Below, one piece after another: positions 60,677 through 64,000 of a stretch of DNA of 64,000 nt. Below the pieces are notes generated by a model. It worked only from the letters and a program-made list of their open reading frames with translations, did no database searches and was not told the DNA's origin. The DNA lies in the NCBI RefSeq assembly GCF_020685205.1, contig NZ_JAJERB010000002.1, forward strand, positions 496,001-560,000, read 5' to 3'. Within the stretch, counting starts at the first letter, position 1; the number at the start of each line of letters is the position of its first letter. The stretch is from Hymenobacter translucens (GTDB lineage Bacteria > Bacteroidota > Bacteroidia > Cytophagales > Hymenobacteraceae). The translations under genes and the position numbers were made by a program.

Positions 60677-62053
60677 ATGCATTCATCTGCTTTTCTTCGT
60701 TTGCTTCCTTCCGTGGCTGTGGCCCTGCTGCTCAGCGGCTGCTACTCCCGCGAAGACATGAATGCCGGCGGCGAAGCCACCCGGCCCGAAACCGAAGAGA
60801 CCACAGCCCCGGCTCCGAACGATTCCAAACCGGCCCCAACCACGGCAGAAGCCCCGGAGCAAGGCAGTGCCGCCGGGCCCCTGGCCCAGGCCAGCATCTT
60901 TCTGGAAGTTTCCGGCTCGATGGAAGGCTTTATGCCCAAAGCCAGCGGGGCGGAAAATACCCGGTTTCAGCAGCACGCGGCCCAGTTTCTGTCGGACCTC
61001 AACCGCAGCACCGCCGTGCAGCGCAAAAGCTATTTCCGCATCAAGGAAAAGCCTTACGCCGACTCGTATCAGCAGCTTTCCCAGACGGTGCGCAGCGGTA
61101 TTCAGCAGCCGGCCAGCAGTACCGACATTCCTTCAGTGCTCGATACGCTCGTGAGCCGCTACTACGCGCCCAACTCGGTAAGCGTGCTGATTTCCGACTT
61201 TATCTACTCGCCGAAAAACGCCGGGGCTATTCCCTACATCAGCACCGACGTCACGGACGCTTTGAACCGGGCCGGCCGGTCGGACCTGGCCGTGTCGGTA
61301 TATGGGTACACCTCCGACTTCCGGGGCGCGTTTTACCCGGCCTTGAAAACGGCCGTCAAAAAAATCAACCCGTGCTGCGACACCGACATTCCCTACTACT
61401 TCTGGGTGGTGGGGCCAGCCGACGCCGTGCGGCGGTTTGATGCGCTGCTGCTGGAGCGGCAGCCGGCGCAGCAGGCCCATTTCGGGGTGAAGTACCCGAC
61501 CCCGGCTTCGTCCCTGCTCAACCGGTTCCAGAACGTAGGCTCGTGGTACTACGGCGAAAAGGACGCCAGCAAGCGCACCGCCGGGGCTTCGTACCATACC
61601 GTGGCCGTCAGCAAAGTGTCGGCCCAGGAACCGGTGGAGTTTGTGGTGGGGCTTGATCTGAAGACCCTGCCGGCCCTGTACCGCGACGTGAACTACCTGA
61701 AGCCCAACCTACAGCTGCAGGCCCAGGATACCGACGCGAAGATTGTGAGCGTATTTGCCGCCACCGACCAGACGAAAAACAGCAGCGGGGCCGAAAATCT
61801 GTACACGCATTTCGTGAAAGTGCGCGTTACCCGGCTCGGCAAGGCGGCCCGGCCCCTGCAGCTGACGCTAAACGACCAGCGCCCGGGCTGGATCGGGCAG
61901 TGGACCACCAAGAATGACAGCAACATCAACCAGGCCGGCGCCAAAACCTTTGCCCTGAGCAGCCTGCTCGACGGCGTGGCGGCCGTCACGACCGGTGAGC
62001 AGGAGCAGGCCCCGGTTTTCCGGATTCCGCTCACCCTGCAGCCCGCCGATTAA
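60677..62053 (+). CDS. vWA-like lipoprotein in an FtsZ-like gene cluster
   Basis: A 458-aa lipoprotein with lipobox LSGC (C22), a proline/threonine-rich linker (25-65), then a von Willebrand A-like domain. The metal site can be traced as FLEVSGSMEGFM (E77-x-S79-x-S81, with glutamate where aspartate is usual), a threonine in SSTDIPSVL (T149), and an aspartate in VLISDFIY (D174). The second half is a strand-rich domain with no family that I know. The ATG at 60677 is chosen because the signal begins there; 38 open codons upstream have no such signal. It is followed by a small membrane protein gene (121 bp later) and an FtsZ-like gene, with which it probably forms one unit. Confidence 0.72.
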   Translation: MHSSAFLRLLPSVAVALLLSGCYSREDMNAGGEATRPETEETTAPAPNDSKPAPTTAEAPEQGSAAGPLAQASIFLEVSGSMEGFMPKASGAENTRFQQHAAQFLSDLNRSTAVQRKSYFRIKEKPYADSYQQLSQTVRSGIQQPASSTDIPSVLDTLVSRYYAPNSVSVLISDFIYSPKNAGAIPYISTDVTDALNRAGRSDLAVSVYGYTSDFRGAFYPALKTAVKKINPCCDTDIPYYFWVVGPADAVRRFDALLLERQPAQQAHFGVKYPTPASSLLNRFQNVGSWYYGEKDASKRTAGASYHTVAVSKVSAQEPVEFVVGLDLKTLPALYRDVNYLKPNLQLQAQDTDAKIVSVFAATDQTKNSSGAENLYTHFVKVRVTRLGKAARPLQLTLNDQRPGWIGQWTTKNDSNINQAGAKTFALSSLLDGVAAVTTGEQEQAPVFRIPLTLQPAD

Positions 62054-62174
62054 GGATAACGCAACCCGCCGAACCCGCGTAACGACGCCCTAAAGGCACG
62101 TTTCTTGCGGCCCCGCCCACCTTCGACTTTCCACCGACCCGCGAAGCATCCGCTTTCGCGCCATTTCCTGACCC

Positions 62175-62567
62175 ATGAAAGGCTTCTTCCGCTTTCTCTA
62201 CGAGCTGATTGGCTCGCCCCAGCCCCCCTCCGAAACGCCCGTGTACCGGGAGGTGATTTTCCCGAATGTGGGTTTGCTTACCCTGGGTTTGTCCCTGGCG
62301 CTGGTGCTGATTTTCTACTACCTGATCAACCGCGCCATGGGCGTCGCCACGTTCAACAAGGTGCGGCACTGGGTGATTTTCCTGGTTATCAGCGCGGTGC
62401 TGTCCTTTCTGATCGGTATCTGGCAGGCTAACTCCCAGGCCGTGGCTTCTCACTCCTACATCTACTGGATGTCGACCTGGAACGCCATCCTCGGCATGGT
62501 CTGGTTTTTTCTGTTCTCCATCATTCTCAAGCGCGGCTCCACCAACGCCAGCACGACTCCTTTTTAG
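62175..62567 (+). CDS. Small three-helix membrane protein in the FtsZ-like cluster
   Basis: A 130-aa protein with three clear membrane helices (about residues 33-53, 66-84 and 100-120). The N-terminal 30 residues are polar with a SPQPPSETP stretch, and the tail is short. No catalytic motif and no family that I know. It is placed between the vWA-like lipoprotein gene and the tubulin-like gene on the same strand. It might connect the cytoplasmic FtsZ-like filament to the lipoprotein across the inner membrane, which is a guess from position. Confidence 0.75.
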   Translation: MKGFFRFLYELIGSPQPPSETPVYREVIFPNVGLLTLGLSLALVLIFYYLINRAMGVATFNKVRHWVIFLVISAVLSFLIGIWQANSQAVASHSYIYWMSTWNAILGMVWFFLFSIILKRGSTNASTTPF

Positions 62568-62702
62568 GGGCTCGGGGTCCTGGGTGCTTAGGGTCTTAGC
62601 TGATGTTCTGATGACTGGCAAGAATCATTATTGTCAGCGACTAACGTCCAAGACCCCAAAACCCGGAAAAATCCAAGACCCCAGGTTCCCAAGATCTTAA
62701 GA
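62568..62702. repeat. Intergenic palindrome of GGGGTCTT units, copy 2
   Basis: The left part (62577-62597) has GGGGTCC and AGGGTCTTAG. The right part has CCAAGACCCCAAAACCC (from 62648) and CCAAGACCCCAGG (from 62674). The units are the same as in the copy at 58559, and GATGTTCTGATG in the centre resembles the inner hairpin arm of that copy. Pairing here is imperfect. It occupies most of the gap between the small membrane protein gene and the tubulin-like gene. Confidence 0.6.
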
Positions 62703-62712
62703 ACCCAATTCC

Positions 62713-64000
62713 ATGGCTAAACTCTTTTTATTCGGCATTGGCGGCACGGGCTCCCGCGTGATTCGCTCCCTGACCATGCTGCTGGCTTCGGGCGTGAAGC
62801 TCGCCAACTGCGACCGGGTGGTGCCCATCATCATCGACCCTGACGCCCACAACGGCGACATGAACCGCACAGTGGACATGCTGAAAAGCTACCAGCAGAT
62901 CTACCAGCGCCTGGGCAAGCGGGAAGACGGCTTCTTCCAGACCGACATCAGCACCCTGAGCAGCATCTCGGCCGATACCAACGGGGGCGTGAAGGACACG
63001 TTCGTGTTCGATTTCGGTGGCATCAACCAAAGCTTCCGGCAGTACCTGAGCTACGACCAGCTTTCGGTCGACTCCAAGGGCCTCGTGGAGCTGCTCTTCA
63101 CCCAGGACAACCTGGAAAGCCCGCTGACCATCGGCTTCCGCGGCTCGCCCAACGTGGGCAGCATCGTGCTGAACAAAGTGGTGGAGTCGCCGGAAATCCG
63201 GTTTTTCGCCGACAACTTCCAGGCCGGGGACCGGGTGTTTTTCGTGTCGAGCATCTTCGGCGGCACCGGCGCGGCCGGCTTCCCGCTTTTGCTCAAAAAC
63301 CTCAAGGACCCGAACACCCGCCTCAGCAACGCCCGTTACCTGCGCGACGCCCTGACGGGGGCCGTGACGGTGATGCCCTACTTCGCGCTGCAGAGCGAGG
63401 ACAACTCGGTTATCGACTCGAACTCCTTTCTAACCAAGACCAAGGCCGCGCTCAGCTACTACGAGCACAACCTGCAGGGCCTTGACGCGCTGTACTACCT
63501 GGCCGACACGCCCGACACGCCCTACGAAAACCAGCCCGGCGGCACCGCTCAGCGCAACAAGGCCCACCTGATCGAGCTGCTGGCCGCGCTGAGCATCGTG
63601 GACTTCATGCAGTACTCCGAGTCGGAGCTGCGCAACGGCGGGCCCCACTTCCACGAGTACGGGCTGGGCGTGGACTCGCAGGAGCTGAACTTCAGCCATA
63701 TGCCCGACGAAAGCCGGGAGCTGATTGCCAAGCACCTCACCCAGCTGCTGTACTTCACCCGCTACCACAAGCAGCACCTGCCCACCGACAAGGCGCCCTA
63801 CCACGACAACCTGAACCTGGACCACGCCCTGCGCAACGAGCCCATCTTCAAGGAGCTCAACAACTTCCTGCACAGCCCCGAGTACGGCGTGGACGAGTGG
63901 CTCAAGGAGCTAAGCCAGAACCGCCGCTCCTTCCGCCCCTTCGACCTGACCACCGACGACTTCAACGCCATGATTGCGGGCAAGCCGGTGGAAAAGAAGT
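62713..64000 (+). CDS. Tubulin/FtsZ-like protein, partial (runs past the window end)
   Basis: An ATG at 62713 opens a frame with no stop up to the window edge (429 codons seen). The N-terminus, MAKLFLFGIGGTGSRVIRSL, is a glycine-rich nucleotide-binding start as in tubulin-like proteins, and residues 179-190 (SSIFGGTGAAGF) hold the tubulin/FtsZ signature GGTG(A)AG. Beyond that, helices and strands continue without homology that I can see. Large proteins of this kind (tubulin-like, over 800 aa) are known from bacterial genomes next to vWA genes. It should bind GTP and might polymerise. No signal peptide, so cytoplasmic. No start alternative is needed. Confidence 0.78.
   Translation, partial: MAKLFLFGIGGTGSRVIRSLTMLLASGVKLANCDRVVPIIIDPDAHNGDMNRTVDMLKSYQQIYQRLGKREDGFFQTDISTLSSISADTNGGVKDTFVFDFGGINQSFRQYLSYDQLSVDSKGLVELLFTQDNLESPLTIGFRGSPNVGSIVLNKVVESPEIRFFADNFQAGDRVFFVSSIFGGTGAAGFPLLLKNLKDPNTRLSNARYLRDALTGAVTVMPYFALQSEDNSVIDSNSFLTKTKAALSYYEHNLQGLDALYYLADTPDTPYENQPGGTAQRNKAHLIELLAALSIVDFMQYSESELRNGGPHFHEYGLGVDSQELNFSHMPDESRELIAKHLTQLLYFTRYHKQHLPTDKAPYHDNLNLDHALRNEPIFKELNNFLHSPEYGVDEWLKELSQNRRSFRPFDLTTDDFNAMIAGKPVEKK

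What the first reader, a model, noticed from the sequence alone, without database searches (positions are those of the whole stretch)
60677..64000. Tubulin/FtsZ-like protein clustered with a vWA-like lipoprotein and a membrane protein
The sequence shows a tubulin-type loop (FGGTGAAG, residues 182-189 of the 62713 frame) downstream of a lipoprotein with a vWA-like metal site and a three-helix protein. From memory, Makarova and Koonin (Biology Direct, 2010) predicted a membrane-remodelling system pairing an FtsZ-like family with a vWA protein, a GTPase and OmpA-type proteins. This looks like the left end of such a system in a Hymenobacter-like genome, in a layout where the vWA part is an exported lipoprotein and not cytosolic. 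If so, the filament would be coupled through the small membrane protein to the periplasm.
Basis: partly seen in the sequence, partly recalled or inferred. Interest (0 to 1): 0.8.

Follow-up and report, generated by a model that had tools for sequence, protein, structure and literature searches.

The report
Tubulin-actin cassette with ion motor
A Hymenobacter gene cluster encodes a tubulin-like protein, an actin-like protein, an exported lipoprotein and the two parts of an ion-driven membrane motor side by side, and related bacteria keep the set together, which points to an undescribed machine linking the inside of the cell to its envelope.

The parts
60677..62053 (+). vWA-like lipoprotein, 458 aa (first cassette gene)
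62175..62567 (+). small membrane protein, 130 aa, three predicted TM helices
   Evidence: homologue in 76 of 80 named loci
62713..64000 (+). tubulin/FtsZ-fold protein, 482 aa; the window holds the first 429 aa, the gene ends at 64161. The cassette goes on beyond the window, all + strand, in window position = L002 position + 60000: actin-superfamily protein 64707..68177 (1156 aa); accessory 159-aa lipoprotein-like ORF 68202..68681; 509-aa linker 68694..70223; MotA/ZorA-like 70446..71906; MotB/ZorB-like 72278..72961
   Evidence: tubulin-like; beyond the window:

Best explanation
The operon encodes one trans-envelope machine. In the cytoplasm a tubulin-like GTPase and an actin-like ATPase form a pair comparable to FtsZ and FtsA. 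Through the small membrane protein and the 509-aa linker they sit on the inner membrane. There they organise or gate an ion-driven 5:2 motor made of the MotA/ZorA-like and MotB/ZorB-like subunits, whose long cytoplasmic tail is the likely contact with the pair. The OmpA-like domain grips peptidoglycan, and the vWA-like lipoprotein is the periplasmic or outer-membrane part that senses or receives the motion. Shown here: the tubulin fold; actin-superfamily loops; conserved ion-channel residues; a conserved gene set and order; a natural tubulin-actin fusion; genes kept after operon break-up; exchange of the cassette as a block. Inferred: nucleotide use, filaments, physical contact, torque, and the role (envelope upkeep or remodelling is my best guess). 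Where no motor is recognised the same core must act through another output.
For: Fold. Actin loops: 14 of 14 aligned rows, and in Prevotella, Gloeothece, Picosynechococcus and two of three distant relatives; profiles. Motor: MotB-like Asp21 is invariant in 13 of 13 and aligns with D24 of 8vvn and D26 of 8qyd, positions counted by me; PMC11890865 names D24 (ZorB type I) as critical. MotA-like Thr136 and Ser172, invariant in 13 of 13, fall on a GT and GS of ZorA (T147/S184 by my count), in an alignment that is weak on its own, E=0.24. Linkage: 66 of the 70 named loci with enough context hold all seven genes in order on one strand. In 395 phylum genomes, 9 of 9 with the actin-like gene have the tubulin-like gene next to it. 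Fusion: P0353, 1641 aa, tubulin-like 31-511, actin-like 523-1639. Unlinked but kept: in G040 lipoprotein-TM-tubulin, actin + motA, and motB lie at three sites of one contig. Block evolution.
Against: No experiment. The motor is not seen everywhere: G056, G305, G427, G074 and G148 have the core but no match to either motor profile in the whole genome, and four named loci with enough context lack motB or more. The named loci are the closest 80 of 579, and the profiles were built from relatives that overlap with them. NTP use and polymerisation are untested and I did not locate a T7 loop. The MotA-like match to solved chains is weak (E 0.025-0.24 for TolQ and ZorA). The vWA assignment rests on middling Z and a non-canonical loop. 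High distance correlations are partly expected from shared descent. The fusion is one metagenomic protein cluster. Gaps of 545, 222 and 371 bp inside the cluster mean a single transcript is not shown.
Confidence: 0.6

Rival explanations
1. Zorya-like anti-phage defence: the ZorAB-type motor senses envelope damage by phage and the tubulin/actin pair is the effector or scaffold.
For: ZorB1 profile E=5.7e-13 and ZorA2 E=5.2e-5 in PADLOC. Patchy in the phylum: actin-like gene in 9 of 395 genomes, 4 of those 9 in the window's genus, its own genome included. Cassette swapped in place in three Hymenobacter. TerD-like genes beside one distant relative.
Against: Among the seven cassette ORFs scanned with PADLOC (the 159-aa ORF was not scanned) nothing matches ZorC, ZorD or ZorE; besides ZorA/ZorB models only LmuB appears (E=0.008, MotA-like tail). 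A tubulin-like homologue is in 36 of 36 congeners, more like a core function. Several lineages have the core without a recognised ZorAB pair.
Confidence: 0.17
2. The core four genes are a membrane-remodelling or positioning scaffold in which the motor is an add-on, as in the 2010 FtsZl1 prediction; force comes from filament dynamics and not from ion flow.
For: Core without a motor-profile match in the whole genomes of G056, G305, G427, G074, G148, and without one in the stretches fetched from Prevotella sp. oral taxon 299 and two cyanobacterial plasmids. Prediction in PMC2875224.
Against: In 66 named loci and in the distant genome G365 motor genes travel with the core. Channel residues are invariant. 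Absence is not firm: the MotA profile also missed the MotA-like gene of G365 that Pfam finds, and G148's locus ends at a contig edge.
Confidence: 0.2
3. A Ter-like stress or metal response complex, with the tubulin and actin relatives acting as non-filament nucleotide switches.
For: Three TerD-like ORFs beside the pair in G241 (one scanned, PF02342 E=2.8e-68; the others alike by eye).
Against: TerD seen in one relative only; no Pfam TerD match in the window's operon.
Confidence: 0.05

Closest known systems
FtsZl1 (Tubulin_2, PF13809) / vWA / OmpA predicted membrane-remodelling system, Makarova and Koonin 2010 (PMC2875224; parts 1-3 of 5 read, term search of the whole main text)
   Same: Divergent FtsZ-like protein in operons with a vWA protein, sometimes with a signal peptide, an OmpA-domain protein and membrane proteins; found beside conventional FtsZ.
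   Different: That paper lists a GTPase and protein kinases. Its main text has 0 hits for MotA, ExbB or TolQ, and its 'actin' hits are background, Actinobacteria or references (supplements not read). Here there is an actin-like protein and a stator pair, and no GTPase or kinase in the Pfam scans. Most published members have a long coiled-coil; this one is 482 aa (coiled-coil not predicted here).
Zorya ZorAB motor (PMC11890865; abstract and passages seen)
   Same: MotA-like subunit with a long cytoplasmic tail and MotB-like subunit with a TM Asp and peptidoglycan-binding domain.
   Different: No ZorC, ZorD or ZorE match; tubulin-like, actin-like and vWA-like partners instead; tubulin-like homologue in all 36 congeners searched.
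vWA force transducers with TolQ-like motors (PMC12204202; section 8 read, passages)
   Same: vWA proteins linked with PMF-driven motors, function unknown.
   Different: Those vWA proteins have a TM helix that binds or enters the motor; here the vWA-like protein is a lipoprotein and a separate MotB exists. That text has 0 hits for tubulin or FtsZ.
FtsZ-FtsA of the divisome (general knowledge)
   Same: Adjacent tubulin-fold and actin-fold genes; FtsA is the best Pfam match of the actin-like protein, below its cut-off.
   Different: Not the division pair: another locus over the tubulin-family cut-off, presumably the division FtsZ, lies elsewhere; the actin-like protein has 1156 aa.

Membership tests
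FtsZ/tubulin superfamily | GTPase-domain fold | tested here: met
FtsZ/tubulin superfamily | glycine-rich T1 and T4 loops | tested here: met
   G10, G11, G13, R15 and F182-A187 invariant in 39 rows; loop names recalled
FtsZ/tubulin superfamily | T7 catalytic loop, GTPase activity, filaments | not tested
   T7 not located; activity needs the bench
FtsZl1 / Tubulin_2 (PF13809) | profile score over the curated cut-off | tested here: inconclusive
   15.7 bits against 27 for the window protein; relatives such as P0015, P0023 and P0086 carry precomputed PF13809
FtsZl1 / Tubulin_2 (PF13809) | operon with vWA and OmpA-type genes | tested here: met
   OmpA/MotB-type gene and a vWA-like (not proven vWA) lipoprotein in order
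FtsZl1 / Tubulin_2 (PF13809) | operon GTPase or kinase (frequent, not universal) | tested here: not met
   none in the Pfam scans of the operon ORFs and three ORFs to the right
Actin superfamily | phosphate-1 and phosphate-2 loops and profile match | tested here: met
   both loops in 14 of 14 rows; 13 PDB sequences at E<=1, all actin, MreB, FtsA, exopolyphosphatase or Hsp70, best 6.2e-4; Pfam FtsA below cut-off; no fold predicted
MotAB/ZorAB 5:2 motor | MotB-type TM Asp | tested here: met
   D21 invariant in 13 of 13, aligned to ZorB Asp
MotAB/ZorAB 5:2 motor | MotA-type Thr/Ser ring | tested here: met
   T136 and S172 invariant in 13 of 13; alignment to ZorA weak, E=0.24; PF01618 23.6 bits against 22.9, 21.3
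MotAB/ZorAB 5:2 motor | 5:2 stoichiometry and ion flow | not testable with these tools
   needs purified complex
Zorya defence system | ZorC/ZorD or ZorE genes | tested here: not met
   no match among the seven cassette ORFs scanned; genes further out not scanned with PADLOC
vWA domain | vWA fold | tested here: inconclusive
vWA domain | canonical MIDAS DxSxS | tested here: not met
   0 of 17 aligned; the Gloeothece relative reads DGSGSM

The most novel reading that the evidence does not exclude
A machine class not described before, in which a tubulin-superfamily and an actin-superfamily protein jointly steer, or are driven by, an ion-powered rotary motor across the envelope: a cytoskeleton-coupled stator with a modular output, old enough that its four-gene core is shared by Bacteroidota and cyanobacterial plasmids.
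Probability: 0.4. Interest if true: 0.95.

Novelty: new variant of a known kind. Interest (0 to 1): 0.8.

Why it matters
In 2010 a reviewer of the FtsZl1 paper asked how a cytoplasmic FtsZ-like protein could work with periplasmic and outer-membrane partners. This cassette offers a concrete answer: a transmembrane motor with a cytoplasmic tail and a periplasmic grip. It makes the question testable in culturable Hymenobacter, Pontibacter and Rufibacter. It would also add a new partner set to the 5:2 motors and give tubulin and actin relatives a shared, once even fused, bacterial use apart from the division FtsZ.

Tried and rejected
Rejected: (a) a P-loop GTPase or extra vWA genes to the right: none in the Pfam scans, which went to about window 77524. 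(b) The S9 peptidase and the nucleotidyltransferase as members: they flank only part of the loci. (c) The 159-aa lipoprotein-like ORF as a core part: no relative in 20 loci. (d) SrfB kinship of the actin-like protein: PF07520 E=0.072 only; not pursued. (e) A phage or plasmid origin: no match of the tubulin-like protein in 50,697 phage records; in 72,556 plasmid records 6 with the tubulin-like and 1 with the actin-like protein, of which I opened 3.

Led nowhere: sequence search of solved structures with the vWA-like alignment (no relevant hit) and with the tubulin-like one (22 rows: CetZ, FtsZ and 20 glutathione transferases, best E=0.15); Foldseek for the vWA-like model. Paper searches listed nothing on this gene set that I recognised; two listed papers that hold some of the words, PMC7824862 and PMC5898192, were not opened. 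Supplementary files could not be read. In the VIA lists 845 of 1000 and 997 of 1000 chains were aligned, so absent families are not excluded.

Counts left out or adverse: the 80 named loci are the best of 579 confirmed relatives and the tubulin-like gene was the query; 10 of the 80 lacked flanking DNA and were not counted for order; of the other 70, L082, L109 and L112 lack motB and L115 lacks p509, motA and motB. L112 has its actin-like frame in two pieces. I fetched 20 of the 39 relatives with a match, 17 of them congeners. Of 36 congeners, G036 has only a distant homologue (39%), and G003 and G005 have the gene in two frames. The actin-like neighbours of G241 and G340 match weakly and were not found by the whole-genome search; Pfam found no family in those of G241 and G365. 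G445 has no actin-like match.
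Full report
What is there. The window is C21:496001-560000 of a 4.96-Mb genome. The contig continues, so I read on to the right. On the + strand lie, in order: a lipoprotein (60677..62053), a small membrane protein (62175..62567), the flagged protein (62713..64161, 482 aa), a 1156-aa protein (64707..68177), a 159-aa lipoprotein-like ORF, a 509-aa linker, a 486-aa MotA/ExbB-like protein (70446..71906) and a 227-aa MotB/OmpA-like protein (72278..72961). 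A prolyl oligopeptidase follows; a nucleotidyltransferase-like gene precedes (name by my reading).

The actin-like protein. FtsA, MreB and related profiles match weakly around residues 815-880, below curated cut-offs. The 13 PDB sequences at E<=1 are actin, MreB, FtsA, exopolyphosphatase or Hsp70, best 6.2e-4. Both phosphate loops (DFGT[ST]N near residue 594, DIGGG[TS][TS]D near 825) are in 14 of 14 aligned rows. I predicted no structure for it, and the N-terminal half has no assigned domain. NCBI names some relatives 'cell division protein FtsA'.

The motor. The last gene matches ZorB1 (E=5.7e-13) and the one before it ZorA2 (E=5.2e-5) in PADLOC; the MotB-like profile finds two solved MotB/ZorB-type chains (8vvn 1.4e-6, 8qyd 2.3e-5). 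Asp21, invariant in 13 of 13, aligns with D24 of 8vvn and D26 of 8qyd by my count. PMC11890865 (passages seen) names D24 (type I) as the critical residue, packed against Ser/Thr of ZorA. MotA-like Thr136 and Ser172 are invariant in 13 of 13 and fall on a GT and GS of ZorA in an alignment that is weak on its own (E=0.24). Roughly 285 aa follow the membrane part. Two other MotA/ExbB-family genes lie elsewhere in the genome.

Conservation. A tubulin-like homologue is in 36 of 36 congeners and 3 of 22 other genomes, the window's own apart. I fetched 20 of these 39; of the 17 congeners among them 14 had enough DNA and all 14 carry the actin-like gene, motA and motB. In the 80 named loci, the closest of 579 confirmed relatives (Hymenobacter, Pontibacter, Rufibacter, Adhaeribacter, Cesiribacter, Nafulsella, Flavobacteriaceae and others), the profiles find tubulin 80 (the query), actin 79, lipoprotein 77, TM 76, linker 73, motA 72, motB 66. 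Of the 70 with enough context 66 have all seven in order on one strand. The profiles were built from relatives that overlap with these species, so this is not an independent sample. In 395 genomes drawn from the phylum (two searches, taken to be the same draw because the handles agree) the actin-like gene is in 9, 4 of them in the window's genus with its own genome included, and the tubulin-like gene in 13; in all 9 the two are adjacent.

The other four of the 13 are distant or broken. G241, G340 and G365 have an actin-like neighbour that matches weakly (E 9.9e-6, 1.9e-6, 1.6e-12 in the small set); the whole-genome search found the one in G365 but not those in G241 and G340. Loop patterns of the actin kind are present in the G241 and G365 neighbours, and one of the two in G340. 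G445 has a split tubulin frame followed by partial motA and motB, and no actin-like match. G365 has an OmpA/motB gene, lipoprotein, TM protein, tubulin, actin, a coiled-coil-like ORF and a MotA_ExbB gene in a row.

Three signs of joint function. Second, in G040 the lipoprotein-TM-tubulin group, actin with motA, and motB lie at about 3.36, 3.60 and 1.71 Mb of one contig, yet all six are kept; the linker was not tested. Third, pairwise distances of five cassette proteins correlate at 0.91-0.99 over 67 loci, the window's own included; shared descent explains part of this, as a flanking gene also reaches 0.79-0.91 among unreplaced loci.

Cassette replacement. Between the same flanking genes, L095 (H. 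telluris), L097 (H. norwichensis) and L099 (H. gummosus) hold a cassette of another lineage in the opposite orientation, with a linker-gene copy beside the peptidase that looks left over. The flanking nucleotidyltransferase is 80-85% identical to ours, but tubulin, actin, motA and motB only 40-46%. With these three loci the flank/tubulin correlation over 28 loci is 0.37, without them 0.89.

Core and modules. G056, G305, G427, G074 and G148 have the core but no match to the motA or motB profile in the whole genome. This is not proof of absence: the MotA profile also missed the gene of G365 that Pfam finds, and the G148 locus ends at a contig edge. In G305 and G427 a WG-repeat protein lies downstream, in G074 a protein with a sub-threshold SH3 match, in G241 TerD genes. 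Prevotella sp. oral taxon 299 has lipoprotein, TM, tubulin, actin and a short linker match and no motor match in the 19.5 kb fetched. Of 5 cyanobacterial plasmid records I opened two, Gloeothece and Picosynechococcus: both have a lipoprotein match (E 5.5e-13, 2.3e-8), a small protein with several hydrophobic stretches (by position and size, no profile match), tubulin (3.2e-65, 1.4e-54) and actin (4.6e-12, 1.7e-19) with both loops. In Gloeothece the lipoprotein gene is on the opposite strand. So the four-gene core looks like the constant part and the ZorAB-type motor one output.

Literature. PMC2875224 (parts 1-3 of 5 read; term search of the main text) predicts FtsZl1 with vWA, GTPase and OmpA; it has 0 hits for MotA, ExbB, TolQ and no actin-like operon partner. 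PMC12204202 (section 8 and passages) describes vWA proteins linked with TolQ-like motors and has 0 hits for tubulin or FtsZ; PMC12505986 (passages) likewise. PMC9871819 (passages) treats Tubulin_2 proteins as sparse FtsZ-like relatives. My searches showed no description of the tubulin-actin-motor set; they cover open-licence PMC papers only, and supplements were not read.

Verdict. The reading as a relative of the 2010 system is partly right. New and surprising are the actin-like partner, the ZorAB-type motor, the fusion and the block exchange. Mechanism and role remain to be tested.

Noticed in passing
L095, L097, L099: In-place replacement of the whole cassette by an inverted cassette of another lineage, with a linker-gene copy that looks left over; possible local exchange between Hymenobacter strains.
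   Followed up: partly
just right of the window, 64176-64629 (L002 4176-4629): A 45-nt inverted repeat pair (93% complementary, 364 nt between) bounds a 127-aa ORF between the tubulin-like and actin-like genes; the gap is about 200 bp in the close congener L018, so it looks like a recent insertion.
   Followed up: partly
L024 and L036: The tubulin-like gene is split into two frames in G003 and G005 while the other cassette genes still match: sequencing error or decay.
   Followed up: no
L123 1013-2901: TerD-like genes directly downstream of a distant tubulin/actin-like pair (one of three scanned).
   Followed up: no
L131 1-3420: F0F1 ATP synthase subunit genes on the same Picosynechococcus plasmid as the four-gene core.
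   Followed up: no
proteins P0304 and P0321; P0244 and P0301: Two different actin-like proteins are listed under each of the names H. siberiensis and H. lapidiphilus, so some species may carry two cassettes.
   Followed up: no
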